Assembly (NCBI RefSeq): GCF_964033635.1
Contig: NZ_OZ035533.1
Coordinates: 4,526,001-4,590,000 of the forward strand
DNA: 64,000 nucleotides
From: Chitinophaga sp. MM2321
GTDB lineage: Bacteria; Bacteroidota; Bacteroidia; Chitinophagales; Chitinophagaceae
Direction: 5' to 3'
The notes under the pieces were generated by a model, which was not told the origin of the DNA, searched no databases, and saw nothing but the letters and a program-made list of their open reading frames with translations. Below are positions 4,738-30,336 of the stretch, piece after piece. How positions within the stretch are numbered: position 1 is the first letter of the stretch; each line of letters opens with the position of its first letter. A program made the position numbers and the translations under genes.

Positions 4738-4773
4738 ACAGGCTGTCAGTTGCAGGCGCAACAGACAGCCTGT
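4738..4773 (-). terminator. Strong hairpin after the ten-gene SusCD/phosphatase operon
   Basis: Two nested perfect stems: ACAGGCTGTC with GACAGCCTGT outside, and GTTGC with GCAAC inside, around a 4-base loop, separated by one unpaired base per side. It begins 13 bases beyond the stop codon of the last operon gene. There is no good U tract in the minus direction, so it may act as an mRNA 3' stabiliser or a factor-assisted terminator. Confidence 0.6.
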
Positions 4774-4785: not shown

Positions 4786-6459
4786 TTACTCTGAAATCAC
4801 TGTTTTACCATCCAATGCCCACTCAGGTTTAATTTTCATCCCCATCCAGGCCATCACATTCACGGCCATATCCATGGAATGCGGCACCAGTTGCGTGGCA
4901 TCAATTTCGGACGGATTCAATACATCTTTTTTCACATCCCACTGTAAGCCGTTGGAGATCGTAAGATCGGCGGCTGTTTTACTAAAATCCTTGATGCTAT
5001 TACCCGTTGGCAGTTCATTCGCTTTCCAGTAACCGATCAGTGAAGCATAATCCGGGTGCTCTTTACTGATAGTTTTGAATGCCCATTTATTAATGGTAGC
5101 GGCAGACAAAACTGTTTTCCATACCCGGATATCAGCGATATAATTATCACCGGAGCCATCGTCGCCATTATAGCCATAATTCAGCGTACCATCTGTGCCT
5201 ACTACAAAAGGCAACCCGGCATCCAATGATCCCATGTCTTTAATATCAGGACCTGCCACAAAGAATTCACCATCGAGGTAAAAGCCGATCGTACCCTGTC
5301 GGTCAAATGTTACCGTAACATGATGCCAGATGCCATCAGCTACCGGCGGACCATTCCGCACATCAATCCTGGACTTGTCAGCACCTTTATAGTTAAGGCG
5401 GATGTTCCCATCGGTCTTATAGATAATCCACCCGGTATTTGAACCACTACCCCAGTTCTTATTTCCAATAACACCATGGTCATCACCACCATCATAAGTA
5501 GTCTGTATATTAAACTCAATCGTAAAATTCTGTGCCGCACCAAAATGAAATGCCGGGTTATCCGAATAAGCCGCGTGATCTCTTCCATCTTTGCGGTAAA
5601 AGAAAGGATAGGTGCCGTCATAAGGTACGTTTAACGGGGGAAGCTCCAGCGTACTGGATGTAAAGGCTTTGTTGTAGTACAACAGGAAGGTATTCCTTTC
5701 ATTAAAACTATCCCCTCCATAAGTACCTTCTTCCGTGCCACCATGATTGGAGGTGATCACGATCAACCAGTCTTCCTTTGCATATGCTTTCCTATTTTTC
5801 AGCGCCGCCAGGATCTCCCCGATATAAGTATCTACCTGGTGAATCGCAGCTGTATAAGCCGCAGCATTGGCAGAGAAGCCGCTGCTTTTACCGGCGGTAT
5901 TCACACTGCTGAAAGCAACCAGCAGCACATCGGGATCGGTATGTTGCAGGCGTCCGATAGCAGAGTCTTTTGCGGCGATATCATTGCCGGTGGTTTTCAC
6001 CAGCGTGTTGGTACCAGCCTGCAGCAGCAGGGTATCATTGAGCGAGGCGCTGCTGCTCACACCGGTTATTTGTAAGTTAGTACTGATAGCCATCCGCTGT
6101 GGAAAGGAAGGATAGCTTTCCAGTTTATTCCCCGTATATACGTTACCGTTAATGCCATTTTTATGGTTGATGGTACCGGTCAGCAAACTGGCCCAGGAAG
6201 CAGCATCCAGTGTAGCCGTGTCCGTTACTGCATCCCAGCTGGACACACTGGCGGATAACAGGGACTTTATATTGGGAATATCGGCATCCCGCACTACCTG
6301 TCCGCGTGCGCCTTCGATGGCAATGATCAGTACTTTCTTTTTCACTGCATCGGGTAGCGAATCAGTGACTACGTTATTCTCAAACAATACCGGCTTATTA
6401 CAGCTGCCTGCCAGCAACAGTAATAAGGAAAATGCAGGCGCTACTAAATTTCTTATCAT
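4786..6459 (-). CDS. Alkaline-phosphatase-fold lipoprotein with inserted LamG-like domain (paralogue 1)
   Basis: 557 residues, lipoprotein signal with Cys at 20 (LLLLLAGSCNK). Residues 40-280 resemble the type I phosphodiesterase/alkaline phosphatase superfamily: VLIIAIEGARG, then ASWASLLTG, then ITSNHGGTEEG. Residues about 300-495 read as a concanavalin A-like/LamG domain (FTIEFNIQTT, WHHVTVTFDRQG, IADIRVWKTVLS); together with the tail this may be what Pfam calls DUF4983. The last 50 residues (MDMAVNVMAWMGM...WALDG) resemble the end of the phosphatase fold, so the lectin-like domain appears nested. By-eye comparison suggests lost metal ligands: E49 for the usual Asp, N238 in SNHG for SDHG, and no His in the middle motif (K191). 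Last gene of the operon, 27 bases after its paralogue. Confidence 0.8.
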   Translation of the reverse strand: MIRNLVAPAFSLLLLLAGSCNKPVLFENNVVTDSLPDAVKKKVLIIAIEGARGQVVRDADIPNIKSLLSASVSSWDAVTDTATLDAASWASLLTGTINHKNGINGNVYTGNKLESYPSFPQRMAISTNLQITGVSSSASLNDTLLLQAGTNTLVKTTGNDIAAKDSAIGRLQHTDPDVLLVAFSSVNTAGKSSGFSANAAAYTAAIHQVDTYIGEILAALKNRKAYAKEDWLIVITSNHGGTEEGTYGGDSFNERNTFLLYYNKAFTSSTLELPPLNVPYDGTYPFFYRKDGRDHAAYSDNPAFHFGAAQNFTIEFNIQTTYDGGDDHGVIGNKNWGSGSNTGWIIYKTDGNIRLNYKGADKSRIDVRNGPPVADGIWHHVTVTFDRQGTIGFYLDGEFFVAGPDIKDMGSLDAGLPFVVGTDGTLNYGYNGDDGSGDNYIADIRVWKTVLSAATINKWAFKTISKEHPDYASLIGYWKANELPTGNSIKDFSKTAADLTISNGLQWDVKKDVLNPSEIDATQLVPHSMDMAVNVMAWMGMKIKPEWALDGKTVISE

Positions 6460-6486
6460 GGTAAATCTTTAAAAATCGCTGAATAA

Positions 6487-8157
6487 TTACGGTAGCCAGG
6501 AAATACCATCCAGGCCCCACGACGGGTCGGCAGTTATATGCAGCCAGGCAAATACGGTAGGTACCACATCTACACTTTGCGGCACTGGCGCCGGTAACTG
6601 GGTATTACAGAAATCTATTTCCTGGTTTACCCATTGCGGTGAACCATGCAACAGCAGGTCTTTTTTCAACGGTCCAACATCTGTCAGCACACTACCTGTA
6701 GGACTGGTTGCTTTCCACCAGCCAATTATCCGGCTGTAGTAAGGATTGTTTGTCTGAATGGTATCGCAATGGCTATATTTCTGCATATCTTCTTTGGTCC
6801 ATACGGTATCCCATATACGAATATTCGCCAGCTGGAAATCGGCATTCCCCCAGCTTCCACGATAATTCCCGGTGATATCATCGCCTACAGCTAATGTCAC
6901 CGCATCCTGTGGTGCAAACGACGACAGGTTATTCAGCGAGCTGCCGCCTGCCGGCAGGCCATCCTGGTACAGTGCCAATTCGCCTGCACCACTGCTACGG
7001 TCTACCGTAAAGGCCAGCGTATGCCATTTGTTATCGGTTATAGCCGCTCCGGTTGAATTTACATCCACCCTGCCGCCAGAACCGTCACCAGCCTGGAATT
7101 TCCAGCCAGCTGACCCCTTGGGACATAACAACCAGCCCTTATTACCACCACTATTCCAGTCCTTATTACCGATAAATGGCGGGTCACTATCAAATCCTCT
7201 TGAACGGATAGATAACTGAACCGTAAATTTTTTGATGCTATCGAAATTATACAGCGGATCATTTGAATAAGCATATTCACCGGTCGATGCAAAACGCACC
7301 GCTTTAAGAGAAGCCAGTGGGGGTACTACTTCTTTTCCCCCGAATTTTTTATTAAAGAAGATGGTGAAGATGTTCCGCTCTTCATGCGTGTTACTTCCTT
7401 CCGCATTATCAATACCACCATGATCAGAGCTGATAATGACCAGCCAGTCTTCCTTATCTTTGGTAGCACGGCTTTCTATCGCGGCCAACAGGTCGCCCAC
7501 ATAAGCATCCACGGTAGAAATGGCGCTCATATATTCCGGTACATCAGGGCCGTATCCGGCATCATGCGCTGCGGAAAGCACCCCACTGAAACCTACCACC
7601 ACCATGTCTGCATTGTCTGTTTTCAGCCTGCCTACCGCACTGTCACGCACCGCAGCATCCTGTCCGGCAAGGCTCACTTTCACGTCCGCAGAAGCAATCA
7701 GCTGGTCGTTGACAGCAGGCCATGACTGCACCGATACGGTACGCAGATGCGGCGCCAATGCTTTCACATATTTAAATGCCATCGGGAAGCGACTCAGGTT
7801 ACTGCCGGAAAAGCTATCATCCGTTACACCGTGCTTTTCACTCCACACACCGGTGAGGGTGCTGGTCCAGCCAGCTCCTGTGGTAGTAGGTGGTTGTGTT
7901 AAAGCATCAAAACTATACACAGCATGTGGCAACATGCCCGTCATATTAGGCGTTTGCGCCACCTTCATGGCATCACCGCGCACACCGGATATACCGATGT
8001 ACAATACCTTTCGCCTGATATTATTCACATCCGGTGCACTGGTGGTATCATTGGGATCTATGTCTGTTGGAGGTCCCACCACCAGCATCTTTTCTTTGAA
8101 ACAGGCTGCCAGCAAAAACAGCAAACCTATGAGCGCAGGAAGAAGTCTTTTCATCAT
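6487..8157 (-). CDS. Alkaline-phosphatase-fold lipoprotein with inserted LamG-like domain (paralogue 2)
   Basis: 556 residues with the same architecture as the following gene: lipoprotein Cys at 19 (LLFLLAACFKE), phosphatase-like part about 50-275, LamG-like part about 290-500 (FTVQLSIRSRG, WHTLAFTVDRSSG, LANIRIWDTVWT), then a tail SVDVVPTVFAWLHI...WGLDG matching the C-terminal end of phosphatase-fold proteins. It keeps SSDHGG (D245, H246) and an H198 in the AAHDAGYGP motif, but has S57 where the first metal-binding Asp of the superfamily is expected (YIGISGVRGD). Activity is therefore uncertain. It starts 5 bases after the delta-60 gene, so it is in the same operon. The substrate cannot be named; a surface-anchored phosphoester- or glycan-binding role is inference. 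Confidence 0.8.
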   Translation of the reverse strand: MMKRLLPALIGLLFLLAACFKEKMLVVGPPTDIDPNDTTSAPDVNNIRRKVLYIGISGVRGDAMKVAQTPNMTGMLPHAVYSFDALTQPPTTTGAGWTSTLTGVWSEKHGVTDDSFSGSNLSRFPMAFKYVKALAPHLRTVSVQSWPAVNDQLIASADVKVSLAGQDAAVRDSAVGRLKTDNADMVVVGFSGVLSAAHDAGYGPDVPEYMSAISTVDAYVGDLLAAIESRATKDKEDWLVIISSDHGGIDNAEGSNTHEERNIFTIFFNKKFGGKEVVPPLASLKAVRFASTGEYAYSNDPLYNFDSIKKFTVQLSIRSRGFDSDPPFIGNKDWNSGGNKGWLLCPKGSAGWKFQAGDGSGGRVDVNSTGAAITDNKWHTLAFTVDRSSGAGELALYQDGLPAGGSSLNNLSSFAPQDAVTLAVGDDITGNYRGSWGNADFQLANIRIWDTVWTKEDMQKYSHCDTIQTNNPYYSRIIGWWKATSPTGSVLTDVGPLKKDLLLHGSPQWVNQEIDFCNTQLPAPVPQSVDVVPTVFAWLHITADPSWGLDGISWLP

Positions 8158-8162
8158 ACTTT

Positions 8163-9770
8163 TTAATATCGTAGTAACATAATACTGTTCAGCGTCAGCA
8201 GGTCATATTGCGAGAAACTGCCCACCATGATAGTTGCATTGCTGTTGGGTACATTCAGCATACGGGTTATTGTACCACCCAGTGAGCCCATCGAATTATA
8301 CCCTTTGCTCAGCTTCCCGTCTTCATCAAGGATAACCGTTCCGCCACGTTTTACGCCGGAGAAGGCGTCAAAATATCCACTGAGGAAAATCTTTCCGTTC
8401 TTCAGTTGTATTGCGGTGTTGATAAATCCGGCAGGACCTGCATTCGCGCCGATGCCAACACTGAAGCCATTGTACAGGGAGCCATCTGCATTCAGTACGG
8501 CTACTTTGCGGGATTCAGTACCATTTATTTTTCCAAACATGCCTGTGATGAGATAACGCCCGCCAGTCACTGGTGATATGGTGAGCACCCGGTCATCCGG
8601 GCCGCTGCCGGTGTTAAAAGTATTATCCAGTTCACCATTAGCATTGAGTCTTACGATACCCCCTGTCTGCTGACCGTGATAGTTGGTGAAAGTTCCTACC
8701 AGCATAATCCTGCCATCATCCTGTATGAGCGCATTCGCAATGGATCCATTCGGCCCCGGATAGCTGCCGCGCCTGGCCGTGCTATAGTTAAATGTGGAAT
8801 CAAAGGAGCCATCTTCATTCAGCCGCATAATACCTTCCATGCGAATACTGTCTATGATAACAGAATCACGTTTACCATCGAAGCTGATACCTGCATAATT
8901 CTTGCGCATAAAATATTTAAAACCTCCTACCAATACCAGCTTACCGCTGTCGGGTGTTTGTAATACTACAGCCACCGCACCATCCAAATAAGCATTCAGT
9001 CCAGGGACGGTATCGCGGTTACCCAGCGGGGTTACTACTACGGTGCTGTCATACATACCATTGGCATGCAGGCGTACAATATTCCGCAGGTAGCCGTTTT
9101 TGAAGCGGTTGTCATAGTTGCTGATACTTCCTGCCACAATGTATTTACCGGAAGCCTGTACTACTGTACTAAATACCATACCCTCTATTCCTTTACCCAC
9201 TTTAAAATCATGGTCCAGCGTACCGTCACCGTTGATACGTGCCAATCCGCGGTAGCCATCTTTGGCACCGGAGTTGTCATAATCTTCAAAGGAGCCGCCG
9301 ATCAGGTATTTACCACCGGGAACATAAGTAATGGCATGTATAGTCCCCTTATCAGCACCGGGTACAGAAGCAAATGACAGGTCCGTAGTAACGGGTCCGG
9401 TTACACGAAATTTTGGTCCGGCAAAAACCTGCCGGTTTACCGTGAGCGTAATCAGGCCGCTACTACCCATTTCCGGCACTTTGGCCGTAATGGAACTTTC
9501 CGTCAGGGCGGTGATCTCTCCGGGTACATCATTAAATTTGATGACTATACCGCTATCCTTATACAAGGCAAATCCACTTCCTGTAATGGTAACGGTAGCG
9601 CCTACACTACCGGCCGCCGGTGTGGCCACCGTTTTATCTACTTTTATTTTTAATGGCTCCTTCGCATCAGCGTAAGGATCTTTTCCTACGTAATTATCTT
9701 TCTTACATGCTGACATCAAAATCAGCAGTACCATAGTCCAGGCCAGCGAAAACTTTTTCATATTCATCAT
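8163..9770 (-). CDS. Delta-60-repeat lipoprotein with IPT/TIG domain (DUF5008-like)
   Basis: About 535 residues. Three nearby ATGs (9770, 9767, 9761) are possible; all precede the lipoprotein signal KKFSLAWTMVLLILMSACKK. After the anchor comes an IPT/TIG-like beta-sandwich (KTVATPAAGSVGATVTITGSGF). The rest holds about seven repeats of the form GKY-L-GGSF...-GLARI-DG-LD, known as delta-60 repeats, with clear copies at GGKYLIGGSF, SGKYIVAGSI, SGKLVLVGGF, DGRIMLVGTF, GGRYLITGMF, NGKIFLSGYF and a last half copy NATIMVGSF. That count would suit a seven-bladed beta-propeller. The N-terminal part resembles what I recall as DUF5008. Probably a surface-exposed binding protein of the uptake complex. 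Confidence 0.8.
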   Translation of the reverse strand: MMNMKKFSLAWTMVLLILMSACKKDNYVGKDPYADAKEPLKIKVDKTVATPAAGSVGATVTITGSGFALYKDSGIVIKFNDVPGEITALTESSITAKVPEMGSSGLITLTVNRQVFAGPKFRVTGPVTTDLSFASVPGADKGTIHAITYVPGGKYLIGGSFEDYDNSGAKDGYRGLARINGDGTLDHDFKVGKGIEGMVFSTVVQASGKYIVAGSISNYDNRFKNGYLRNIVRLHANGMYDSTVVVTPLGNRDTVPGLNAYLDGAVAVVLQTPDSGKLVLVGGFKYFMRKNYAGISFDGKRDSVIIDSIRMEGIMRLNEDGSFDSTFNYSTARRGSYPGPNGSIANALIQDDGRIMLVGTFTNYHGQQTGGIVRLNANGELDNTFNTGSGPDDRVLTISPVTGGRYLITGMFGKINGTESRKVAVLNADGSLYNGFSVGIGANAGPAGFINTAIQLKNGKIFLSGYFDAFSGVKRGGTVILDEDGKLSKGYNSMGSLGGTITRMLNVPNSNATIMVGSFSQYDLLTLNSIMLLRY

Positions 9771-9780
9771 GATAAATGCG

Positions 9781-10491
9781 TTACTGTAAATATTCCCTGA
9801 CGGTGGCTGCAAAATCAAAGGGATTGAAGCCCAGCTGATGGTTAGCATCCAGTACATGAATGACCCCGTTCTTTGTTTGCAGATCAGAAGTTGCTACTAA
9901 TGAAATATTGTAAACAGGATTGTCCAGGCTACCCATATCCGCGATCATAACCTGCCGGGGACCTACATCCCTAGTGCCGTTATAATCGCTGAACAGCACC
10001 CCCAGGTTCATGATATATCCCTGCCAGGATTCCATATTCATACCGGGGTATACTTCCGGTTGTGAACTCATGAAACGGGGAATATCCTTCAACATAAATT
10101 TATCGCGGAAGATGTACCGGGAGAGGTATTTCCGCCACACTTCCGATGGTATATCAGCTAGTTGCAGGGAATCCTTAAAATTAGCGTGGCGGTCACTGTT
10201 CACTATAGCCATCGCCATCTGCACGGAATAATCAGTCGGTGCAAAAAAAGTAATGGTAGAATCGCGCAACACATTTTCCAGTCCTGCAAGCTGTATAACA
10301 GTAGCAACGGTATCAAAAAAATAAGGCTGTGATTGCAGGAACTCATAGCTGGACCCGGGGAATACCCCTTTCTGCAATCCTGTATCGTTGTAGTAGTCCT
10401 TTTTACAGGCGGTAAGCCATACTGCCAGCGCGAGCAGCAGCAGCAGTAGTATACGACCTGGTTTTCCGGATGAGTGCATAGCAGTGATCAT
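9781..10491 (-). CDS. Fasciclin (FAS1) domain lipoprotein, short form
   Basis: 236 residues. The signal peptide ends in LAVWLTACKKD (lipid Cys 29). One FAS1 domain spans about 45-230: SSYEFLQSQPYFFDTVATVI and ITFFAPTDYSV are the first conserved helix and strand, and NGVIHVLDANHQLGF is the C-terminal FAS1 box. FAS1 domains mediate adhesion or carbohydrate contact. The ATG overlaps the SusD stop by four bases (ATGA, 10488-10491), indicating translational coupling, so the product is probably part of the SusCD complex on the cell surface. A longer relative lies at 16172-17182, with matching words such as EYLQSQPGNF and VFAPTDQS. Confidence 0.87.
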   Translation of the reverse strand: MITAMHSSGKPGRILLLLLLALAVWLTACKKDYYNDTGLQKGVFPGSSYEFLQSQPYFFDTVATVIQLAGLENVLRDSTITFFAPTDYSVQMAMAIVNSDRHANFKDSLQLADIPSEVWRKYLSRYIFRDKFMLKDIPRFMSSQPEVYPGMNMESWQGYIMNLGVLFSDYNGTRDVGPRQVMIADMGSLDNPVYNISLVATSDLQTKNGVIHVLDANHQLGFNPFDFAATVREYLQ

Positions 10492-11951
10492 TTTGTCCAG
10501 TAGGTATTTAAAGTGATGTTAGGATTAAAATTCCTGGCGTCGGCTGAAATTGGCCATGTCCACCCACCGCGGTTAAACTGTTCGGGGGTGAGGAAATTTT
10601 TACATTGTACAGGATCGGTTACCCGGCCTGTGCGTACCAGGTCATACCAGCGTACGCCTTCGCCAATCAGTTCCCGTTGTCTCTCCATAAAAATAAATTG
10701 TTTCAGGTCTGTTCCACCGCTGTACTGCTGGGCGCCTGCGCGCTTTCTCACGAGGTTCAGTATTTCAATGGCTTCATCGTTTTTTCCCAGGTTAGCCATG
10801 GCTTCCGCTCCCAGCAGTAATTCGCCGCCATAACGGAAGATGATCAGGTTGTCATCCAGGAGCCAGGAAGCAGTGGTGATCATATTCACCACGTTACTAT
10901 ACTTCACGAACATGGCGCTTGTATTGTTGGCATAAGGCGCATAAAACCACAGGTCCAGCCGTTTGTCTGGTTTATCCTGCGGAAAGATCCGCTTCACATA
11001 ATCTGATTCAAAAAAGCAATCGCTGGTGGCATAGTTTAATACCAGTGGCGAATGTAACGTCCACTGGCCTACGCTTACATAACGGGTGGTTGTACCGTAG
11101 TTGGCATTTACAGAAAATTCAAACAGGCTTTCTTTGGTACGGCCGTCAAATACTTTACGGAAATCTTCTATCGGCAATAATTCAAATGTACCGGAAGCAC
11201 GGAGGGCACGGATAGCATCCGCAGCGCCGGTCCAATATTTTTGCTGGTTGGCTTTATCAAATCCTGCTGCCCACATATTTACATTTGCCATCAGGCCGTA
11301 TATCGCTCCCCTGGCGGCGCGTACGCCCCATTTGGAAGGATCATCATATTGCCAGGGCAGGTCGTCTTTAATTTCATCCAGCTCCTTCAAACAAAACTGT
11401 AATACTTCCACCATCGGTGTACGTGGCAGCGGATGCTGGTCGTAGGCTTCCACATATAAAGGCACGTCGCCATAAATGCGGGAGATAAAGAAATAGGTAA
11501 AAGCCCGTACAAAACGCAGTTCAGCCATGTATTGTTTTACTTCCTGTGGAGATAAGGCTTTTACATCCGGCACCCTTACCAGGTCAATATTACAGGCAGC
11601 GATAGATTGGTAAAAAGGATACCAGTCACTCAATGCATTCATATTATACCGGTCCAGCCGGCTGAAATTGGTCAGGTCATTCTGTCCTACAGCAGTGAAT
11701 ACATCAAAGCCGTTGGTAGCATTAAATTCACCGGCACGGATATCTCCATTGGCCGGTACATACGGCCCGTTGGTAAGGATATCAAACAGGAAACCATATG
11801 CGTTGGCGATGGCAGATTCCACATCCCCTTTTGTTTTCCAGAAGGCGGCATCGCTCATGCGATCCGGCGGCGCCACTTCCAGAAACTTACGGCAACTACC
11901 GGTGGTGAGCAGCACTGCGACCATGAGCCATGTATAAATAATACGCTTCAT
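10488..11951 (-). CDS. SusD/RagB-family outer-membrane nutrient-binding lipoprotein (first-pair partner nearer operon end)
   Basis: 487 residues; lipoprotein signal VLLTTGSCRKFLEVAPPDR, then TPR-like SusD fold. Family marks are FWKTKGDVESAIANAYGFL near the N-terminus, LRFVRAFTYFFISRIYGDVPLY (about 125-145) and the C-terminal ERQRELIGEGVRWYDLVRTG. SusD proteins lie over the SusC pore as a lid and bind the incoming ligand. The gene starts 11 bases after the SusC stop (11963) and its stop overlaps the FAS1 start, so both partners are co-expressed. Confidence 0.95.
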   Translation of the reverse strand: MKRIIYTWLMVAVLLTTGSCRKFLEVAPPDRMSDAAFWKTKGDVESAIANAYGFLFDILTNGPYVPANGDIRAGEFNATNGFDVFTAVGQNDLTNFSRLDRYNMNALSDWYPFYQSIAACNIDLVRVPDVKALSPQEVKQYMAELRFVRAFTYFFISRIYGDVPLYVEAYDQHPLPRTPMVEVLQFCLKELDEIKDDLPWQYDDPSKWGVRAARGAIYGLMANVNMWAAGFDKANQQKYWTGAADAIRALRASGTFELLPIEDFRKVFDGRTKESLFEFSVNANYGTTTRYVSVGQWTLHSPLVLNYATSDCFFESDYVKRIFPQDKPDKRLDLWFYAPYANNTSAMFVKYSNVVNMITTASWLLDDNLIIFRYGGELLLGAEAMANLGKNDEAIEILNLVRKRAGAQQYSGGTDLKQFIFMERQRELIGEGVRWYDLVRTGRVTDPVQCKNFLTPEQFNRGGWTWPISADARNFNPNITLNTYWTK

Positions 11952-11962
11952 ACCCTGATTTT

Positions 11963-14900: not shown

Positions 14901-15088
14901 TCCGACACGGCAATTGCTTTGGGCTTAGCTCCTGTTTGATGCAGCAATACAGATACTCCCGGCAGCGGCGTACGGTCTGTTGAAGCGGTGACCCTGCCCT
15001 TTACGGAAATTATTTTATCCTGCGCAAGTAATGTATCGGAGAATAGTAATAATAAGAGTAATGGTATATATAATTTCATAAATGGCAT
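11963..15088 (-). CDS. SusC/RagA-family TonB-dependent outer-membrane transporter (1041 aa)
   Basis: Signal peptide (MKLYIPLLLLLLFSDTLLAQ; the ATG at 15088 or the internal one at 15079 may be used), carboxypeptidase-regulatory-like domain about 28-115 (VKGRVTASTDRTPLPGVSVLL), plug domain about 130-260 (VEQLLQGRVPGLNI, PLYVIDGVPVDAN, IDVMKDAEATALYGSRGANG, VIVITTRRGQ), then the beta-barrel ending in SKTLSFGLNVEF with the terminal aromatic residue. There is no STN domain, so direct signalling to a FecR is not expected. The DUF5007-like gene ends three bases upstream. Confidence 0.96.
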   Translation of the reverse strand: MPFMKLYIPLLLLLLFSDTLLAQDKIISVKGRVTASTDRTPLPGVSVLLHQTGAKPKAIAVSDDKGEFIIKVAPDAKLELRFISYESLMVSVNNRNIINMQLKPSATSLKESVVVGYQKRTKETVTGAVTRITAKDIQDVPVSNVEQLLQGRVPGLNIQQTTGAPGFRGSASIRGLSQVMVNGSGNDSYLTPQSPLYVIDGVPVDANAGFEYGFQSNGPGTSPLSLIPPEDIETIDVMKDAEATALYGSRGANGVIVITTRRGQSAVPIVRYAGNMFINFPPALRKTIGGKGERDYRVNMIMDTRALDQIHLISLTPFLSDSLNPFFNNSTNWQDIYYQVTYNQTHNLSVSGGDQKLNYKTNVNFYNEKGVIKNTGFDRYSLNQNINFNPNSKLQVAGYLSAGLGKKLKGSGNGLTDVGAGKDVSSSLLPGPSYFNNVGHFTGAMLSKNDTRTYDIRTYLNIMYEVLPHVQLSTNTSFDYTADQEDTFTPALANSDQPAVYGFSGRKENLYNRSMIMYNNVFKDKHAIYGSVFTETTLTQAQTKVIHQANAPNDFYHGPLGFNTYYSSISGTPLKGGFSEVHSVALAANMSYDYMKKYIINVNYRADGNSYAGVKERWAKSPSIGLRWNFNKEKLLEDQKWLDFGDLRFSYGVNLRPTTDVYASLGWYDIKGNYNDVTRISPHLGQMPNPFLKPEKVEQLNYGFDMSIFNGRVGLTVDAYTKTVYNMLYSRPLATSTGFSSTFTNDASLYNYGYEVSLTLRPFKSTSKINWTVNLNCAVNRDVLLSLPGGATQMLSTDNTIINRVGYGALSNYLYVTQGVYRTDDDVPVDPITGLRFRTGDLGYYKGGDVKFGDIDGNYVTDEADKQVAGTPVARITGGFNSYLTYKNFSLSFNGTVLFKRDLINNALAERMDNMRSPYEEKTLVDLSGMNYWSQSGNVSRYPNPYNYNAYTNSYRGLQTLFEEDGSYIKINAVTVGYTVDRKWSSKYHINALRVYTTVTNPLMVTGYTGPNPESVTELGRDRLDTYPVSKTLSFGLNVEF

Positions 15089-15091
15089 GTA

Positions 15092-16144
15092 TTAATCGTC
15101 ATTGAAAAGCGGGTTCCTGCGGAAATAGAATATGATGGTCCAGTCACCCGGCTCATAAATAGCGAAGTTCAAACCGAAGTAAGCATCCACCCTTTCACCA
15201 CCAAAACCTTTACGGCTATATCCAAATGTGCAGGTAGCTTTACCGTTGGCTGCAAACTCCGTTTTAAGATTGGTCAGCGGCAATGGATAAGCAACATCGT
15301 AAGTCACAGAACTATCTGTTTGCCGGCGGTTGAAGCCATGCAACAGCTTATCCCATTTTGTATTATTAAATACTGCCGGATTGATAGCCTCCAGGTTTTC
15401 ATCCAGGAATTTAAAAGTGAGTGAATGCCCGGTTGGATTGGCTTTGTTGATATATACCGATACCAGTGTGTCTGTAAAGAGACTATCCTTATCGCTCGCG
15501 TAATACAGCTCTGTGAGCGTGCTGGGATGAATGGTATAGGGTACCTGGTATTGTCCGCCTCCTTGTATGGGTCGGCTCTCCATTTTACGCTCCCTTGTAT
15601 ACACATCATACTCATACGGTTCGTAAGGCACTTCTTTCAACGGGCGCAGGTTGAAATTTTGAATGGTGCGTTCATTGCCTTTGTTTTCCACCTTTATATC
15701 AAACACGTAACCTGAATCGGGATAAGTGGCGATCAAGGAGGAAGGGGCGCTGCGGAAAATAAAGTCGCCGGAGCCTTTGCGTATTTCCAGGAAAGGCGCT
15801 TCTACCCACACACGTTTGACTTCAATTTCTTCCAATGATTTTTCCAACCCGGTATAATCACGTAACCATTCCTGCACCTTTACGGGTTGAAAGAGTTCCG
15901 GTGCATCCTTTCCGCCTGATACGCGTCTCGCATTCTCAATGGTGAACAGTAACGGATAGCTGGACCCATCTGCGCTGAATTGCGTCAGCTCCAGCTGCGT
16001 ACGGCCCAGCACAGGTTCATACACCGATTTCTTGTTAAAGTTGGCATCCTGGCTGAGATAATCTTTTTTCTCAGGGAGCTTTCTGCATGCAGTGATGGCG
16101 AGAGAAAGTACCACGGTGCATTTTAAATAACCTTGCCATTTCAT
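15092..16144 (-). CDS. Lipoprotein of unknown function, DUF5007-like
   Basis: 350 residues. The signal LKCTVVLSLAITACRKLPEKKDYLSQ fits a lipoprotein. The protein is mostly predicted beta (YPLLFTIENARRVSGG, DFIFRSAPSSLI, YVFDIKVENKGNER) and ends DWTIIFYFRRNPLFNDD. The pattern KKDYLSQDANFNKKSVYEPVLGR is what I recall for DUF5007, found next to SusCD genes; that family name is from memory. It sits between the first FAS1 gene (27 bases upstream) and the second SusC gene (3 bases downstream). Likely a surface accessory protein, with no enzymatic motif visible. Confidence 0.75.
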   Translation of the reverse strand: MKWQGYLKCTVVLSLAITACRKLPEKKDYLSQDANFNKKSVYEPVLGRTQLELTQFSADGSSYPLLFTIENARRVSGGKDAPELFQPVKVQEWLRDYTGLEKSLEEIEVKRVWVEAPFLEIRKGSGDFIFRSAPSSLIATYPDSGYVFDIKVENKGNERTIQNFNLRPLKEVPYEPYEYDVYTRERKMESRPIQGGGQYQVPYTIHPSTLTELYYASDKDSLFTDTLVSVYINKANPTGHSLTFKFLDENLEAINPAVFNNTKWDKLLHGFNRRQTDSSVTYDVAYPLPLTNLKTEFAANGKATCTFGYSRKGFGGERVDAYFGLNFAIYEPGDWTIIFYFRRNPLFNDD

Positions 16145-16171
16145 CTGAAAAACATTTGTCGTTTATATGAT

Positions 16172-17182
16172 TTATTGCTCCCTGATAGCGATATACCTGA
16201 TCACTTCCGTAACGGTACAATCCTTATCATTACTGTCTTTGTAACTGTAGTTGAGTGTGTATGTCTGTCCGATAGGATCAAATAAACACAAGCCATTATT
16301 TTTAATCGTTGCATTGGCTGATCCGGGCGCGGAGGAAACGGTTATCTTATTATCTGCATGAATAGTAAGCAGCATGCGGTAGTCGTCTGCCAGTTTATTG
16401 GCCGCTTCTGTTTCCACAGTATTGGCATCGATGGCTTTTAATTTTTTTGGATAAAAGTTCCAGAGGTTTACGACACCATTGCCTAACGTAACGGCACCGT
16501 CAGCAAACGTTTTTTCTTCAGAATAGAGGTTCTGATAAGCGGCTGCTTTGGTAACGAAAGTATTGAAGCCTACCACATGCTTTGATTCCAGGATATAGAC
16601 CATCCCGTTAGTAGCATGAATGTCTGACGTTGTAGCAAACGTAGACAACCAGTATTTGATGAAGCGGGAGCCATTCATACTGGAAAGGCGCACTACCTCC
16701 GAGCCCAGTCCGGCAGCGCCGGCAGCAGGACGTTGTACGAGGCGGATATCCATGGCACGCAGTCCCATACTGGTGAGTGTGCGTCCATCCTGTCCGGCAA
16801 AGCTCTCCATTTCCCAATTACCTTTGAAGAGATAATTAGCGAGTACACAACGCCAGGTGGAGGAATCAATATCATTGAGTGTAACAGGCGGAGAGCTCAA
16901 TGTTTTCAGGTATACATTATATGCTTCCAGTGCAGCGTTCAGACTCTGATCGGTAGGGGCAAACACGGTCACCGTATCCTTTTTGAGTACCGTTGCCAGA
17001 CCGCCTTTCTCCAGCATCAACAATACATTTTTGAAATTACCCGGCTGCGATTGCAGGTATTCGTATACGGTACCCGCATACGTATCTTCCGGCACCGCAG
17101 CGCGGTAGGTATTATCTTTTTTACAGGATGCCACCACCACACAGCAGAGCAGCAACAAAACAGTGCTGATTTTTCCTTGCAT
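16172..17182 (-). CDS. Fasciclin (FAS1) domain lipoprotein with extra C-terminal domain
   Basis: 336 residues. Lipoprotein signal LLLLCCVVVASCKKD (Cys 20). The FAS1 domain spans about 35-210: TVYEYLQSQPGNFKNVLLML, TVTVFAPTDQSL, and ATNGMVYILESKHVVGF as the last FAS1 box. Residues about 225-336 form a further beta-rich domain whose end (LCLFDPIGQTYTLNYSY, then CTVTEVIRY) looks like the C-terminal domain of DUF1735/DUF4361-type surface glycan-binding proteins. This gives a FAS1 plus binding-domain fusion about 100 residues longer than the paralogue at 9781-10491. It starts 9 bases after the SusD stop. Confidence 0.85.
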   Translation of the reverse strand: MQGKISTVLLLLCCVVVASCKKDNTYRAAVPEDTYAGTVYEYLQSQPGNFKNVLLMLEKGGLATVLKKDTVTVFAPTDQSLNAALEAYNVYLKTLSSPPVTLNDIDSSTWRCVLANYLFKGNWEMESFAGQDGRTLTSMGLRAMDIRLVQRPAAGAAGLGSEVVRLSSMNGSRFIKYWLSTFATTSDIHATNGMVYILESKHVVGFNTFVTKAAAYQNLYSEEKTFADGAVTLGNGVVNLWNFYPKKLKAIDANTVETEAANKLADDYRMLLTIHADNKITVSSAPGSANATIKNNGLCLFDPIGQTYTLNYSYKDSNDKDCTVTEVIRYIAIREQ

Positions 17183-17191
17183 AATTTATAA

Positions 17192-18700
17192 TTATTGTTG
17201 CCAGAATTTATTTTGAATGATTTGTTTGCTGCCATCCAGCACATCTTTTGCAACCGGCCACCACTGGGCGCCTGCGGCGATGTCTGCTGATGTGAACCGG
17301 GAATAATCTGTGAGTTTATCAAATCTTACCAGGTCGTACCAACGCCATCCTTCTCCCAGCAATTCCCTTCTTCTTTCCTGCAGGATAGCCTGCGCGAGAT
17401 TGCCATCAGTAGCTTTAAAAGCCGGCAAGCCCCGCTGCGCGCGCACACTATTCAACAGCTGAATGGCATCCGGGTTTTTACTGAGAAACAGCATGGCTTC
17501 TGCTCTGAGCAGTACCAGCTCTTCGTAGCGGAAGATGATAATAGCAGATTGAAAACTGCGTAATGGATCTGCCCCTGTAATACTCAGCTGTTTTATTTTT
17601 GTGAACATGGGTAACGGATTTCCGAATCCGGTAAAATAGTTACCGCTGGCCGCGCCGCCATCCCCCACTTTAAAGCGTAGATCACCCGGCTCATTAAAAA
17701 TGCGCAGGATCGAATCATTGGATACATAAATATCAGGTGATACCCGGGAGATAAAAGGTTCTGCGAGTGCCCAGTCTTCTATATGACCACCGGCAGATGA
17801 CTCCTGGTAGGTTTTGTTGAAGGGCAATGCAAAAATAACATTGGGCGCCTGACCGGCGAAGGTGCCGTCAACACCTGTCAACGTAGCCACGTCTGCAAAT
17901 GTATAACCACCTGCTGCTTTGTTATCAATCGCCAGGCGTGTATACTTCTCCGTTACAAGATAGTCGCCGCTCCAGGCTGCAATATGCGCCAGTAAAGCAT
18001 AGGCAGCGCCCTTGCTGGCGATAACGCCTTTCCACAACGCGCCACCCTGTCCCCAGTATGGTGACTGCTGTTCGGGGTATTGCTGGTTATACTGCCAGGG
18101 AAGCCCCGCCGCCGCCGCTGTAGCATCCTGCCCGGCCATCGCCAGTATCTTTGCCTGGCTTTCCCGTTGTACCGGTGTAAAGCTGCCATCTGTGGTAGTG
18201 GTCACCATGGGAACATCTCCCCAGATACGGACGAGATAAAAATAGGTGAGTGCACGCAGGAACCGTATGTTGGCGATATCCAGCTTCATCTCTTCCACGG
18301 TATAGCGGAAATCGTTTTCGTGTACCAGCGACAATTTTTCCAGGCACAGGTTTGCCTGTGCTATCGCGGCATAAAAACGACGCCAGTTTTTCCAATTTTC
18401 CAAAGTAGTATAAGTGGCATTAAGCTGGTTGCCTGTTACCGCATCCAGGTCACTACGGGAGGCGCTGGAAAAATCGCCGCCACGTAATTCACCATAAGCG
18501 AGATAGGCATTGTTATCAGCAAGTGCGGCACGAAACATACCATAGGTAGCAAATACAGCAGAGCGGGCATCATTCTTTGTACGCCACATCTGTGCATCTG
18601 GTACCAGGTGCGTTGGGTCCAGCTCCAGCGTATGCTTGCAGGAAACCATCAGGATGGTGGCTGCCAGCAATATTTTTATATGTAAACGGATATTCGTCAT
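17192..18700 (-). CDS. SusD/RagB-family outer-membrane nutrient-binding lipoprotein (first in operon)
   Basis: 502 residues. Lipoprotein signal LLAATILMVSCKHTLELDPTH. Family marks are MWRTKNDARSAVFATYGMF, IRFLRALTYFYLVRIWGDVPMV and the C-terminal QERRRELLGEGWRWYDLVRFD. It should pair with the SusC encoded 12 bases upstream (18713-21607). It belongs to the same RagB-type branch as the SusD at 10488-11951, but the two are not near-identical, so this is not a recent duplication. Confidence 0.95.
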   Translation of the reverse strand: MTNIRLHIKILLAATILMVSCKHTLELDPTHLVPDAQMWRTKNDARSAVFATYGMFRAALADNNAYLAYGELRGGDFSSASRSDLDAVTGNQLNATYTTLENWKNWRRFYAAIAQANLCLEKLSLVHENDFRYTVEEMKLDIANIRFLRALTYFYLVRIWGDVPMVTTTTDGSFTPVQRESQAKILAMAGQDATAAAAGLPWQYNQQYPEQQSPYWGQGGALWKGVIASKGAAYALLAHIAAWSGDYLVTEKYTRLAIDNKAAGGYTFADVATLTGVDGTFAGQAPNVIFALPFNKTYQESSAGGHIEDWALAEPFISRVSPDIYVSNDSILRIFNEPGDLRFKVGDGGAASGNYFTGFGNPLPMFTKIKQLSITGADPLRSFQSAIIIFRYEELVLLRAEAMLFLSKNPDAIQLLNSVRAQRGLPAFKATDGNLAQAILQERRRELLGEGWRWYDLVRFDKLTDYSRFTSADIAAGAQWWPVAKDVLDGSKQIIQNKFWQQ

Positions 18701-18712
18701 GTAGCGGTGCGT

Positions 18713-21607
18713 TTAAAAATCTGCGTTGATACCAATCGTGAAAGTGCGGGGTAACGGTTGCGCATAACCGTTGCTGTACCCAAAATAATCTGATAGTGAA
18801 GGGTCGCCACCGGAATAAGGTGACAACGTGAATACATTGAGTGCAGACATATATACCTGCAGTTTCCTGATACCAGTTTGTTTTAGGAATGCGTAAGCAG
18901 CCAGGTCATGCCGCAGCGTAATTGCCTGCAATTTCAGCCAGGAAGCCTTTTCGTAGAACAAGGTCTGCTCCGCCTGATAAGGCTTTACCAGGCTCCATGG
19001 ATTGTAGCGGGGATATTTATCCAGGCCGGACTGCACCTGCCAGAAAGTAATTTCCTTTATACCATCCAGCCCTGCTGCTCCTTCTCTGTTGGCAAAATCA
19101 AAGCGGTTAGCCATTTCACCGTTGAGCAGGGAGTTACCCAATGCATAGGAGAAGGAAAGATCGAGTGTCCATTTTTTATATTGCAGCGTATTATTCCATC
19201 CGCCGCGGAAAGGCGGGTTAATATGTCCCTGCAACACACGGTCCTTATCATTAATAACGCCATCTCCGTTTACATCTTTCCAGCGCGGATCACCGGCGTG
19301 TAAAGCAATGCCATCATTCGTAAGCTGTTTGCCGTTTGTTACCGGGATCTCATTGTCGCTGTTGTAAATACCTTCATTCTGCAACAGCCAGAACTGGTCA
19401 GTTGCTTTGCCAACTTCCAGGCGCCGCTGTCCGTAGGTCATGGATTGCAAACCATCCGGCAGGCGTAACAGTTTCTGCTGGTTGTATTGCATCACTATAC
19501 TGCTGGACCAATTCAGCTGGGAGGATAAATGAAAATTCCCTTGCAGGCTCAGTTCTACGCCCCGGTTACTGACATCCATTCCATTCACCGTTTTTCCGGA
19601 GAAGCCGTAAGCTGCGTCCACCGGAGATTGCAGCAGGATGTCTTTGCTCGTGCGGGAATAAATATTCAGTGCAGCCGTAAAATGGTGGAAGGCTTGTAAA
19701 GAAATACCCAGTTCCAGGTGTTCATCATAAGGCCATTTAATACCACCGCCCGTATAGCCTCTGCTGTAAGGCATTCCAAGCGTAGGCATGGAAGCATAGG
19801 TGGCTACTTTGCTACTTCCGCTCCAGCCAATATCTACGGTATAATAAGGTCCGTAACTATAATAATCATCTACAGGCATGCGCGCGGTACGTCCACCACT
19901 GATATTCAGGTGCAGCGCATTGATAGCCGCCGCATCTTTCAGCCATGCTTCTTTCTTCAGATCCCAGTTCAGCGATGCAACCGGTGAAACAGCCCACCAG
20001 TAACCATTTCCAAACAACGATGATCCATCGCTGCGAAGGGAAAGTGTAGCGGTGTACTTATCTTTCATAGCATAGGAAAGATTACCGTAGAAAGATAAAG
20101 TGCGTTGCCGCATATAATCTTTATAGGTATACACCAGCGTTTTATCATGCGAAATCCACAGCGAGCTATCTGTATCCACCTGGATCACCTTTATAAAATC
20201 TGATGGTCCGCGGAAAGCGCGGATATAATCATATTTCAGCTGATCATCTTCCAGTGTTTGTCCTACCTGTATCCGCAATGCGCGTTTACTGTATTCCACA
20301 TAATTATTCCAGCGGATACGCCTGTTGACACCCGTGAAATAAGAGTTGTAGCTGTTGCCATCATTCAGGGAAGCAGGTACAAAAAGGTCGCGGTTATTAT
20401 CGTTGTAATCGATAGAGAACTGTGTATGGAGTGACAGTGTTTTCAACAGATCATATCTCACATCAATAGCTGCCTGTATGGAATTTCCCATATTCCTGTC
20501 TATGCCCGTTTCCAGCAGCTCATTATATTTTGCGAGATAATTTTTATTGGGAGATAACGGGTATTGCTGATTGGTATAATATTCTTCTTCCGCCAGGCGC
20601 TCGCGGATACTGTGGTTCCTGCTTCTGCGTGCGGTAAGCGCCTGTACATAAGTATTGATAAACAATTTTTCTATGGGTATAATGGTCATGTCATAGAACA
20701 CATTATACTTTTTAAGGTTTGTATTATCTGCTACACCATTTTCCGTACGCTCCCCTACACCAAAGCGGAAGTTAGCGCGATTACTGCCACCGGCAATACT
20801 CAGCCCCATGCCATGTTGAAAAGCATTGCGATAATAGGCATCATCCCAGTTGGCAGCGCCAAAATATACCGGCTGTGTGGAATCTGCGAGATAGGCAGGG
20901 AAGTTCATCCATTGTGCAGGCTTCGCATACTGCTGATAAAAAGGCATCAGGAAGTCGCGCTGAAAACTGCCGTTCATTGTTTTGATGGCAGGCTTCACCG
21001 CTACACCGCCATACATATTAAAACCGATATGATAGGCGCCCGGTTCGGGATCTTTTGTAGTAATGACAATGGCGCCACTGGCTGCACGCGGGCCATACAA
21101 TGCAACGGCTTCAGCGCCTTTCAGTACCGATACATTTTGCACGTTGTCCATATCCAGCAATGCATTTACATCGATACCACTGCCTATAGTAGTGAAGTCA
21201 GCATCCTTTATTGCCAGCGCATAGGGATGATTGTTACTCACCAGCGGCATACCATTTACAACATACAAGGGCTGGTTGCTGTAGAGATCTTTGTAACCGC
21301 CCAAAGGAACAGAGAACCCGCGAATAACCGGTACCGGCGCTACGCCGGGCTCACCGGAGGTTCGCAATAACGATACACCGGCCATCCTGCCTTCCAGTAG
21401 CTCCCCTGTATAGAGATAGGGTAATTCCTTTACAGTGTTGTAAGACAGTGAATCTTTTCTGTCTGAGAAAAAAGTGGAGTTCTTCCAAATGGTACGCCTA
21501 TACGAAGTATCCTTCGGCGCATCCTGGCAAAAGCCTTGCTGCGCCCAAAAGATGCCTGCCAACAGCGATAAAGTACCAAGCCGGGTAATGAGTAAAGGTG
21601 AAATCAT
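18713..21607 (-). CDS. SusC/RagA-family TonB-dependent transporter without N-terminal extension domains (964 aa)
   Basis: First gene of the ten-gene operon. The signal peptide ends near GIFWAQQGFCQD. Only about 35 residues separate it from the plug domain (ELLEGRMAGVSLLRTSGEPG, PLYVVNGMPLVSNN, VSVLKGAEAVALYGPRAASG, IVITTKDPEPG), so both the carboxypeptidase-regulatory-like and the STN domains found in most SusC proteins are missing. The barrel follows and ends PRTFTIGINADF. It may depend on the neighbouring SusC for something, or be a minimal form. An ECF-like promoter motif lies about 185 bases upstream (21792-21820). Confidence 0.94.
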   Translation of the reverse strand: MISPLLITRLGTLSLLAGIFWAQQGFCQDAPKDTSYRRTIWKNSTFFSDRKDSLSYNTVKELPYLYTGELLEGRMAGVSLLRTSGEPGVAPVPVIRGFSVPLGGYKDLYSNQPLYVVNGMPLVSNNHPYALAIKDADFTTIGSGIDVNALLDMDNVQNVSVLKGAEAVALYGPRAASGAIVITTKDPEPGAYHIGFNMYGGVAVKPAIKTMNGSFQRDFLMPFYQQYAKPAQWMNFPAYLADSTQPVYFGAANWDDAYYRNAFQHGMGLSIAGGSNRANFRFGVGERTENGVADNTNLKKYNVFYDMTIIPIEKLFINTYVQALTARRSRNHSIRERLAEEEYYTNQQYPLSPNKNYLAKYNELLETGIDRNMGNSIQAAIDVRYDLLKTLSLHTQFSIDYNDNNRDLFVPASLNDGNSYNSYFTGVNRRIRWNNYVEYSKRALRIQVGQTLEDDQLKYDYIRAFRGPSDFIKVIQVDTDSSLWISHDKTLVYTYKDYMRQRTLSFYGNLSYAMKDKYTATLSLRSDGSSLFGNGYWWAVSPVASLNWDLKKEAWLKDAAAINALHLNISGGRTARMPVDDYYSYGPYYTVDIGWSGSSKVATYASMPTLGMPYSRGYTGGGIKWPYDEHLELGISLQAFHHFTAALNIYSRTSKDILLQSPVDAAYGFSGKTVNGMDVSNRGVELSLQGNFHLSSQLNWSSSIVMQYNQQKLLRLPDGLQSMTYGQRRLEVGKATDQFWLLQNEGIYNSDNEIPVTNGKQLTNDGIALHAGDPRWKDVNGDGVINDKDRVLQGHINPPFRGGWNNTLQYKKWTLDLSFSYALGNSLLNGEMANRFDFANREGAAGLDGIKEITFWQVQSGLDKYPRYNPWSLVKPYQAEQTLFYEKASWLKLQAITLRHDLAAYAFLKQTGIRKLQVYMSALNVFTLSPYSGGDPSLSDYFGYSNGYAQPLPRTFTIGINADF

Positions 21608-21791: not shown

Positions 21792-21820
21792 GGACACAGA
21801 AATTTCAGAATACCCCCAAA
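21792..21820 (-). promoter_or_regulatory. ECF-type promoter-like motif upstream of the ten-gene operon
   Basis: Read on the minus strand it is TTTGGGGGTAT, 12 bases, GTGTCC. The same two blocks with exactly the same spacing occur at 30365-30393 between the ECF sigma and FecR genes. The GTC in the second block resembles the -10 of ECF promoters. If used, it leaves a leader of about 175 bases before the SusC start at 21607. In the rest of 21608-21860 I saw no consensus TAnnTTTG promoter. Confidence 0.5.
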
Positions 21821-25886: not shown

Positions 25887-25889
25887 GAC

Positions 25890-29295: not shown

Positions 29296-30336
29296 TTAGT
29301 TCTGTGTCTGCCTCTTTATATAAATATCAGATCCTGATTGAGAGAAGGAAAAGGGAGTGGCAATCTGTAATGCCTTTAATGCCTCCGCAATATTTTCCTT
29401 TTCAAATACGCCATTAAATAACTCATTGCCTAAAGTGGAGTCCTGTAAATGAATATCTACATTATACCATCGTTCCATCTCCCTGGCCAGTAGCCGGAAG
29501 GGTTTATTCTTAAAGATCAGTTGGTTGTTTATCCAGGCTGTTTCATCGCAAAAATTATCGCCTTTTTTCAGGTTTATCGGGACTATCTGTAAACTATCAG
29601 GAGAGCCTTTGCTCCATGCCAGCAGCTTTTGTCCGGGAGTGACCTCCACTTTTCGTTCCCCGCCATGCATGGTTACGGCTACTTTGCCGTTCAGTACCGC
29701 CGTCTCTGAATGATCATCTTCCGGATATGCTTTTACATTAAAAACGGTTCCCAGCACAAGGATATCGATATGTCCGGTATGTACAATAAAGGGATGGCTT
29801 TCGTGTTGCACCACATCAAAATAGGCTTCCCCTTCCAGGAATACTTCCCGGTTGCCATGGGCAAAGCCATCGCCATAGGTAAGCTGACTGCTGCTATTCA
29901 TCCATACGGTGGTGCCATCCGGCAGTTGTATGCTGGATCTGGCGCCTTTGCGCATAACGATCTTATTCTTCTCCTGACTGATATGTGTATCTACCAGTGG
30001 CCGGGTACGGAACAAAAAGGCCGCACTCACCACTACCAGGATCAGCACCGCTGCGGCCATTGCCCGTATGGGGATACGGCGCACCTTTTTTTCGCTGATA
30101 ACCACCGGTGTCTCTTCTTCCGGTGCGTTCATAGCCGCTTCCAGGTTTGCCCAGCCACTTTCCGCCCACTGCCGGGTATCGGTAGTAGTACTGGGTTGTG
30201 TTGAATCCACTACCTCCATCACAAACGCGGTATCAGGATGCTCCTTCATCCACTGCTGCAATTCTTCCAGCTCGGTTTCTGTAGCTTCACCCGACATGCG
30301 TCTTGCCAATAATAAGCTGATTCTGTCTTCCTTCAT
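29296..30336 (-). CDS. FecR-family anti-sigma factor
   Basis: 346 residues. A cytoplasmic sigma-binding part spans 1-85 (ISLLLARRMSGEATETELEEL), a single membrane helix about 91-109 (RAMAAAVLILVVVSAAFLF), a periplasmic FecR domain about 125-240 (GARSSIQLPDGTTVWMNSSS, EGEAYFDVVQHESHPF, VLGTVFNVKAY), and a C-terminal DUF4974-like part (LIFKNKPFRLLAREMERWYNV) that should meet the STN domain of SusC. It follows the sigma gene by 62 bases; that gap contains the ECF-like motif at 30365-30393. Confidence 0.95.
   Translation of the reverse strand: MKEDRISLLLARRMSGEATETELEELQQWMKEHPDTAFVMEVVDSTQPSTTTDTRQWAESGWANLEAAMNAPEEETPVVISEKKVRRIPIRAMAAAVLILVVVSAAFLFRTRPLVDTHISQEKNKIVMRKGARSSIQLPDGTTVWMNSSSQLTYGDGFAHGNREVFLEGEAYFDVVQHESHPFIVHTGHIDILVLGTVFNVKAYPEDDHSETAVLNGKVAVTMHGGERKVEVTPGQKLLAWSKGSPDSLQIVPINLKKGDNFCDETAWINNQLIFKNKPFRLLAREMERWYNVDIHLQDSTLGNELFNGVFEKENIAEALKALQIATPFSFSQSGSDIYIKRQTQN

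What the first reader, a model, noticed from the sequence alone, without database searches (positions are those of the whole stretch)
4786..21607. Ten-gene surface operon with two SusCD pairs, two FAS1 proteins and no glycoside hydrolase
All ten genes point the same way with gaps of at most about 30 bases and one 4-base overlap. The set includes two SusC, two SusD, two FAS1 lipoproteins, a DUF5007-like and a delta-60 lipoprotein, and two phosphatase-fold/LamG lipoproteins. Classical polysaccharide utilisation loci carry carbohydrate-active enzymes; this one has none. Nearly every product has an outer-surface lipoprotein or outer-membrane signature, which suggests one large uptake or adhesion complex for a phosphorylated or protein-linked ligand. 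Family roles are known; the complex and ligand are inference.
Basis: partly seen in the sequence, partly recalled or inferred. Interest (0 to 1): 0.7.

Follow-up and report, generated by a model that had tools for sequence, protein, structure and literature searches.

The report
Enzyme-free double SusCD uptake cassette
This is a ten-gene set for a surface uptake machine that keeps nearly the same gene order in many soil Bacteroidota, carries no recognisable sugar-cutting enzyme of its own here, and is probably switched on by a neighbouring sensor through a DNA switch found only twice in the genome.

Summary
Observation confirmed: ten co-directional ORFs at 4786-21607 (-), gaps 3-27 nt, one 4-nt overlap, no CAZyme domain. 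The host is a Chitinophaga by nearest relatives.

It is a conserved cassette. SusC1-SusD1-FAS1-DUF5007-SusC2-SusD2-FAS1-delta60-PDE runs without interruption in 77 of the 80 best DUF5007 loci, all Chitinophagaceae/Sphingobacteriaceae or near kin. Published gene names make B. theta BT0268-BT0279 (arabinogalactan-induced PUL5) a likely relative.

Two results change the reading. (1) TTTGGGGGK-N14-GTSTCY occurs exactly twice in each of four genomes with the neighbouring ECF sigma gene, at the ECF/FecR junction and before SusC1, and in none of six other cassette genomes. So the cassette is probably driven by the adjacent ECF/FecR/SusC3/SusD3 module. (2) Both phosphatase-fold proteins lack catalytic residues; the full set is in 0 of 42 cassette-type rows but 88 of 120 homologues. 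A phosphorylated ligand is unsupported here.

In 28 of 80 loci an M60 peptidase directly follows PDE, hinting at a glycoprotein ligand; this genome has none. Ligand, single transcript and complex remain inference.

The parts
18713..21607 (-). SusC1, TonB-dependent transporter; Pfam finds a plug but no N-terminal carboxypeptidase-like domain
17192..18700 (-). SusD1 lipoprotein
16172..17182 (-). FAS1a lipoprotein (fasciclin + BT_3044-like C-terminal domain)
15092..16144 (-). DUF5007 lipoprotein; confident beta-rich model (pLDDT 92) without a convincing PDB match
11963..15088 (-). SusC2, TonB-dependent transporter with N-terminal carboxypeptidase-regulatory-like domain
10488..11951 (-). SusD2 lipoprotein
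9781..10491 (-). FAS1b lipoprotein
8163..9767 (-). TIG/DUF5008 + delta-60 (DUF5122) propeller lipoprotein; start at about 9767 rather than 9857
6487..8157 (-). PDE2, phosphodiesterase-fold + LamG + DUF4983 lipoprotein; catalytic positions read S-T-L-H-D-H instead of D-S-D-H-D-H
4786..6459 (-). PDE1, same architecture; catalytic positions read E-D-N-K-N-H
21792..21820 (-). promoter-like element upstream of SusC1
   Evidence: conserved in three relatives
30365..30393 (-). the same element at the ECF/FecR junction
30399..30971 (-). ECF sigma factor
   Evidence: 72-85% identical orthologues in three relatives
29296..30336 (-). FecR-type anti-sigma factor
25890..29279 (-). SusC3, proposed sensor-transporter; N-terminal segment aligns to the STN-matching segment of the C. 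arvensicola orthologue, but has no STN match itself
24405..25886 (-). SusD3 lipoprotein (SusD-like_2)
21861..24257 (-). MacB/FtsX-type permease between SusD3 and SusC1, absent there in three relatives; not counted as part of the system
4738..4773 (-). hairpin after PDE1, terminator-like but without a T run
   Evidence: -28.7 kcal/mol for 71 nt, z -3.37, 2 of 200 shuffles as good

Best explanation
The ten genes encode one outer-membrane capture-and-import cassette: two SusCD transporters plus six surface lipoproteins (two FAS1, DUF5007, TIG/propeller, two pseudo-phosphodiesterase-LamG proteins) that hold a large ligand without cutting it. In this Chitinophaga the cassette belongs to a cell-surface-signalling regulon: SusC3/SusD3 bind the ligand, the N-terminal STN-like segment of SusC3 signals through FecR, and the ECF sigma factor transcribes fecR-susC3-susD3 and the cassette from two near-identical promoters. 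Shown by computation: gene content, conserved order, two unique and conserved elements, missing catalytic residues. Inferred: sigma binding, single transcript, complex formation, import. The ligand is best guessed as a glycoprotein or its glycopeptides, arabinogalactan-protein-like (about 0.3, weaker than the rest).
For: Order uninterrupted in 77 of 80 loci. The element is found twice in each of 4 genomes with the ECF orthologue, 8 of 8 hits at the two orthologous sites, none in 6 other cassette genomes, backwards control 0 in 10. In three relatives SusC3-SusD3 lie directly before SusC1. STN match in the C. arvensicola SusC3, aligned to the window's SusC3. Catalytic set in 0 of 42 cassette-type rows against 88 of 120 homologues. 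M60 directly after PDE in 28 of 28 cases where it was found in the 80 loci.
Against: The strict pattern was derived from the two sites and the wide one fitted to relatives, so presence is not independent; uniqueness is the informative part. A one-mismatch match lies elsewhere in the genome and at two mismatches the signal equals background, 28 against 28. The STN match is under Pfam's cut-off and the window's own SusC3 has none at E up to 5. A MacB gene now separates SusD3 from SusC1. Most cassettes elsewhere lack this ECF module, so the regulation is local. Four of 13 database PDEs that probably share a contig with DUF5007 keep the six catalytic residues, and phosphatase-type genes lie near the cassette in L022, L150 and L152. 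No ligand evidence from this genome itself; one table lists PUL5 of B. theta as substrate 'Unknown' (PMC13088901).
Confidence: 0.55

Rival explanations
1. An ordinary glycan PUL whose enzymes sit elsewhere: the cassette imports polysaccharide fragments (for example arabinogalactan) cut by unlinked enzymes or by other species.
For: B. theta BT0268 is a SusC gene of an arabinogalactan PUL (PMC5061871 and PMC6874557, passages) and nearby gene names fit the cassette (PMC10434189). Some relatives have glycosidases downstream: GH95 and GH92 (L152), GH95 and GH38 (L153), GH2 (L139, L144).
Against: No CAZyme in the ten genes. Enzymes downstream in relatives differ from locus to locus, and none is in the conserved part. 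The genome as a whole was not searched for arabinogalactan enzymes.
Confidence: 0.25
2. A phosphate-scavenging (Pus-like) system for phosphorylated ligands.
For: Phosphodiesterase fold in two products. Pus SusCD loci with phosphatases exist in Flavobacterium (PMC8115612, passages). Metallophos genes (L022, L150) and PhoX (L152) lie near the cassette in relatives, and 4 of 13 probable cassette PDEs from the database are complete.
Against: Both window PDEs lack metal ligands, and 0 of 42 cassette-type rows are complete.
Confidence: 0.07
3. A decaying PUL that has lost its enzymes.
For: M60 is absent from the genome and the PDE catalytic residues are gone.
Against: All ten ORFs are intact and the same genes and two promoter elements persist in three other Chitinophaga species.
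Confidence: 0.06
4. An adhesion complex rather than an importer.
For: Fasciclin and LamG domains are often adhesive (family knowledge, recalled); both are present.
Against: Two SusCD pairs, and a SusCD-linked sensor module sharing a promoter element, point to nutrient import.
Confidence: 0.07

Closest known systems
Bacteroides thetaiotaomicron PUL5 (BT0267 regulator, BT0268 SusC onward), arabinogalactan-responsive
   Same: By published gene names: SusC (BT0268), then in BT0269-BT0275 SusD, hypothetical, DUF5007, SusD, DUF5124; in BT0277-BT0279 carbohydrate-binding, alkaline phosphatase family, hypothetical.
   Different: Regulated by a hybrid two-component system, not ECF/FecR. FAS1 and delta-60 are not named there, and the sequence could not be fetched, so synteny is not shown.
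B. thetaiotaomicron BT3013-BT3015 locus (PUL with M60-like peptidase and no CAZymes)
   Same: CAZyme-free SusD locus, induced by mucosal glycans; M60-like peptidase as in 28 of 80 related cassettes.
   Different: The window has no M60; no double SusCD, FAS1 or DUF5007 is mentioned in the passage that I saw.
Fec-type cell-surface signalling (ECF sigma, FecR, TonB receptor with STN)
   Same: ECF-FecR-SusC3 in order, element at the ECF/FecR junction, STN match in an orthologue.
   Different: The receptor is a SusC with a SusD, and a second target is a separate two-SusCD cassette.
Phosphate utilisation systems (PusCD) of Flavobacterium
   Same: SusCD with phosphatase-fold partners and no CAZymes (PMC8115612, passages).
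   Different: The phosphatase-fold partners here are surface lipoproteins lacking catalytic residues.

Membership tests
Polysaccharide utilisation locus (PUL) | at least one adjacent SusC-SusD pair | tested here: met
   two pairs in the operon, a third upstream
Polysaccharide utilisation locus (PUL) | linked carbohydrate-active enzymes | tested here: not met
   none in the ten genes; flanks scanned in part
Polysaccharide utilisation locus (PUL) | induction by a glycan | not testable with these tools
   only known for the B. theta locus
Fec-type cell-surface signalling | adjacent ECF sigma and FecR anti-sigma genes | tested here: met
Fec-type cell-surface signalling | receptor with STN signalling domain | tested here: inconclusive
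   sub-threshold STN in the orthologue, none called in the window's SusC3; the segments align
Fec-type cell-surface signalling | sigma-specific promoter at target genes | tested here: inconclusive
   shared, unique, conserved element at two targets; binding not tested
Active NPP/alkaline phosphatase superfamily enzyme | complete set of metal ligands and nucleophile | tested here: not met
   PDE2 S-T-L-H-D-H, PDE1 E-D-N-K-N-H against D-S-D-H-D-H
Pus phosphate-scavenging system | functional phosphatase or phosphodiesterase partner | tested here: not met
Pus phosphate-scavenging system | induction by phosphate starvation | not testable with these tools
   no expression data
B. theta PUL5-type cassette | homologous genes in the same order | tested here: inconclusive

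The most novel reading that the evidence does not exclude
A nearly order-invariant Bacteroidota cassette imports glycoproteins or large glycopeptides through two linked SusCD channels, with FAS1 proteins and catalytically dead phosphodiesterase-LamG proteins as ligand-holding scaffold and with cutting left to optional partners (M60 peptidase or varied glycosidases); in one Chitinophaga clade it is wired to a sensor SusCD by a two-site ECF promoter code.
Probability: 0.25. Interest if true: 0.78.

Novelty: new variant of a known kind. Interest (0 to 1): 0.55.

Why it matters
PUL prediction leans on CAZymes to name a substrate; a conserved cassette with none of its own suggests that a binding-and-import core is kept while cutting enzymes change. 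The two-site regulon gives a direct handle on the inducer: a SusC1-promoter reporter. The degenerate phosphodiesterase domains warn against reading 'alkaline phosphatase family protein' in such loci as phosphate scavenging.

Tried and rejected
Phosphorylated ligand: judged unlikely after the active-site census. M60 as an essential part: rejected, none in this genome. A hydrolase co-transcribed from outside: none seen in the flanking ORFs that were scanned (gaps named in the observation check). DUF5007 by fold: best E 6.9e-4, TMq 0.19, rmsd about 20, so no assignment. PDB by sequence: PDE1 no hit, PDE2 weak hits to NPPs and a pentraxin. Rfam over 4500-31200: none at gathering scores. Looser promoter searches drown in background. 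Three other ECF-FecR gaps that I printed (two in L015, one in L153) show no such element; L137 shows its first half only. Evenly drawn genomes: DUF5007 in 4 of 296 (phylum) and 6 of 395 (class), own genome counted in both and samples overlapping. Paper searches by domain or gene names found no description of the cassette; open-licence papers only, and the 2018 arabinogalactan paper is not held. Papers were seen as passages only: PMC10434189, PMC5061871, PMC6874557, PMC13088901, PMC3267712, PMC11992087, PMC8115612, PMC8406133; PMC7533333 gave no match; all others as search listings.

Full report
OBSERVATION. Ten ORFs lie on the minus strand at 4786-21607. Pfam and NCBIfam support two SusC, two SusD, two fasciclin-domain lipoproteins, DUF5007, a TIG/DUF5008 + delta-60 propeller protein and two phosphodiesterase-fold + LamG + DUF4983 proteins. 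Gaps are 3-27 nt with one 4-nt overlap. Eight products have a lipobox, the two SusC none. A hairpin without a T run follows PDE1 at 4738-4773; the next gene, a catalase on the same strand, starts 150 nt after PDE1. No CAZyme domain is in the ten genes.

ORGANISM. DUF5007 is 76% identical to that of Chitinophaga arvensicola; the genome is one contig of 6,778,472 bases. The genus is inferred from such hits.

CONSERVATION. A genome-contig scan with a 19-sequence DUF5007 alignment confirmed 183 places and kept the best 80. ORFs in these 80 loci were labelled by best BLAST hit to the window proteins. The order SusC1-SusD1-FAS1-DUF5007-SusC2-SusD2-FAS1-delta60-PDE is present in 78 of 80 if unlabelled ORFs are passed over and uninterrupted in 77 of 80. 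The exceptions are L022 (another ORF before a last gene whose N-terminal part does not align as a PDE), L023 (no PDE at the end) and L098 (labels end at the second FAS1 near the locus end). Neighbouring ORFs with one label were merged. Record titles name Chitinophaga, Pedobacter, Niabella, Flavisolibacter, Flavitalea, Mucilaginibacter, Sphingobacterium, Arachidicoccus, Olivibacter, Parapedobacter, one [Flexibacter] and one Sphingobacteriaceae MAG. The loci were chosen by DUF5007 similarity, so this shows that this DUF5007 travels with the cassette, not how common the cassette is: DUF5007 was in 4 of 296 and 6 of 395 evenly drawn genomes, own genome included. The own genome has a second cassette without PDE (L008) and a half-unit SusC-SusD-FAS1-DUF5007-like (L009); half-units are also in L013 and L014, where a DUF5007 match follows. 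That the cassette arose from such a half-unit plus a second SusC-SusD-FAS1 unit is inference.

REGULATION. Upstream lie ECF sigma, FecR, SusC3 and SusD3 (24405-30971). In L019, L020 and L021 (three Chitinophaga) SusC3-SusD3 directly precede SusC1, so the MacB/FtsX gene between them in the window is most simply an insertion; MacB-like genes are also near SusC1 in L056 and L066. The gap before SusC1 and the ECF-FecR gap share GGGGGTAT-N12-GTGTCC, found exactly twice in the genome, with 0 for the pattern read backwards. One further site matches with one mismatch, and at two mismatches hits equal the control, 28 against 28. The pattern was drawn from these two sites, so relatives are the fairer test: both places carry the element there. 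A wider pattern fitted to all of them, TTTGGGGGK-N14-GTSTCY, gives two hits in each of the four genomes with the ECF orthologue, 8 of 8 at the two orthologous sites, and none in six other cassette genomes; the control is 0 in all ten. Of those six, five were searched for the ECF and had best hits of 27-47% identity against 72-85% for the orthologues; the sixth (G310) was not. An STN domain is matched in the C. arvensicola SusC3 (E 5.2e-5, under Pfam's cut-off) but not in the window's SusC3; the two align over that segment. The simplest reading is Fec-type signalling with SusC3 as sensor and the cassette as target. Other cassettes differ: the divergent neighbour in L038 is a hybrid two-component regulator, the kind that controls B. 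theta PUL5.

PSEUDO-PHOSPHODIESTERASES. The PDE2 model (pLDDT 86.2, pTM 0.59) resembles NPP enzymes (best E 1.4e-11). Six catalytic positions were placed from an alignment to Xanthomonas NPP (which NPP residues bind metal is recalled). They were read in 42 rows: the two window proteins, 33 of the 77 PDE-labelled ORFs of 520-640 aa in the 80 loci (one of the 33, from L023, lies outside the cassette position), L012, and six second copies. The set D-S-D-H-D-H is complete in 0 of 42 rows and in 88 of 120 database homologues, which include the window's own PDE2 and close kin. A further histidine, 88 of 88 in the complete ones, is missing in both window proteins. PDE2 reads S-T-L-H-D-H and PDE1 E-D-N-K-N-H. 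Against a blanket rule: by equal contig length PDEs besides the window's probably share a contig with DUF5007, and 4 of them (P0089, P0095, P0100, P0111) are complete at the six positions. Repeated loss of catalysis is therefore likely, but not universal.

NEIGHBOURS AND LIGAND. In 28 of 80 loci an M60 peptidase is the gene directly after PDE. In the 20 downstream stretches fetched, 7 show M60 after PDE and in 7 of 7 a PDE follows it. The window's two adjacent PDE genes thus look like that arrangement without M60, and the genome has none. Of 10 other next genes scanned, four match BT_3987-like_N (two of them over its cut-off clearly, one barely, one just under), three match nothing, and three are a phosphodiesterase-like, an AraC-type and an unmatched opposite-strand ORF (L024, L088, L021). 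Further downstream I found GH95 and GH92 (L152), GH95 and GH38 (L153), GH2 (L139, L144), but also PhoX (L152), calcineurin-type phosphoesterases (L022, L150), a glutaminase-type protein (L143) and unrelated genes; co-transcription is unknown. M60-like proteins cleave glycoproteins (PMC3267712, passages), and a B. theta locus with M60 and no CAZymes is induced by mucosal glycans (PMC11992087, passage). B. theta BT0268 is a SusC gene of an arabinogalactan PUL (PMC5061871; PMC6874557), and the names of BT0269-75 and BT0277-79 are compatible with the cassette (PMC10434189), though FAS1 and delta-60 are not named; PMC13088901 lists PUL5 as 'Unknown'. This favours a glycoprotein-type ligand such as an arabinogalactan protein by association only, about 0.3.

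VERDICT. One uptake system is well supported; a phosphorylated ligand is not; the ligand is open. It is a new variant of a known kind: a CAZyme-free double-SusCD cassette that in one Chitinophaga clade is probably wired to a third SusCD by ECF signalling.

Noticed in passing
window 44604-56319: A separate SusCD pair (50896-56319) with a GH30 and an alpha/beta hydrolase further along the same strand; looks like an ordinary PUL.
   Followed up: no
window 21861-24257: MacB/FtsX-type permease gene between SusD3 and SusC1, absent there in three relatives.
   Followed up: partly
L008 (G000:C1:4346000-4365999): A second, divergent cassette in the same genome without PDE genes; a PepSY-like gene lies upstream.
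   Followed up: partly
L022:18187-20834 (Chitinophaga niastensis): A calcineurin-type phosphoesterase follows delta-60, then a LamG protein with an unrelated C-terminal part; a complete PDE (P0089) lies on a contig of the same length and species.
   Followed up: partly
P0123-P0150: Chryseobacterium and similar proteins with the PDE-LamG-DUF4983 architecture, the complete catalytic set and a C-terminal PF18962 domain.
   Followed up: no
L137:8455-8575 (Pedobacter steynii): An unrelated ECF-FecR gap carries TTTGGGGGG followed by a different second half, a hint of a shared upstream box; one example.
   Followed up: no
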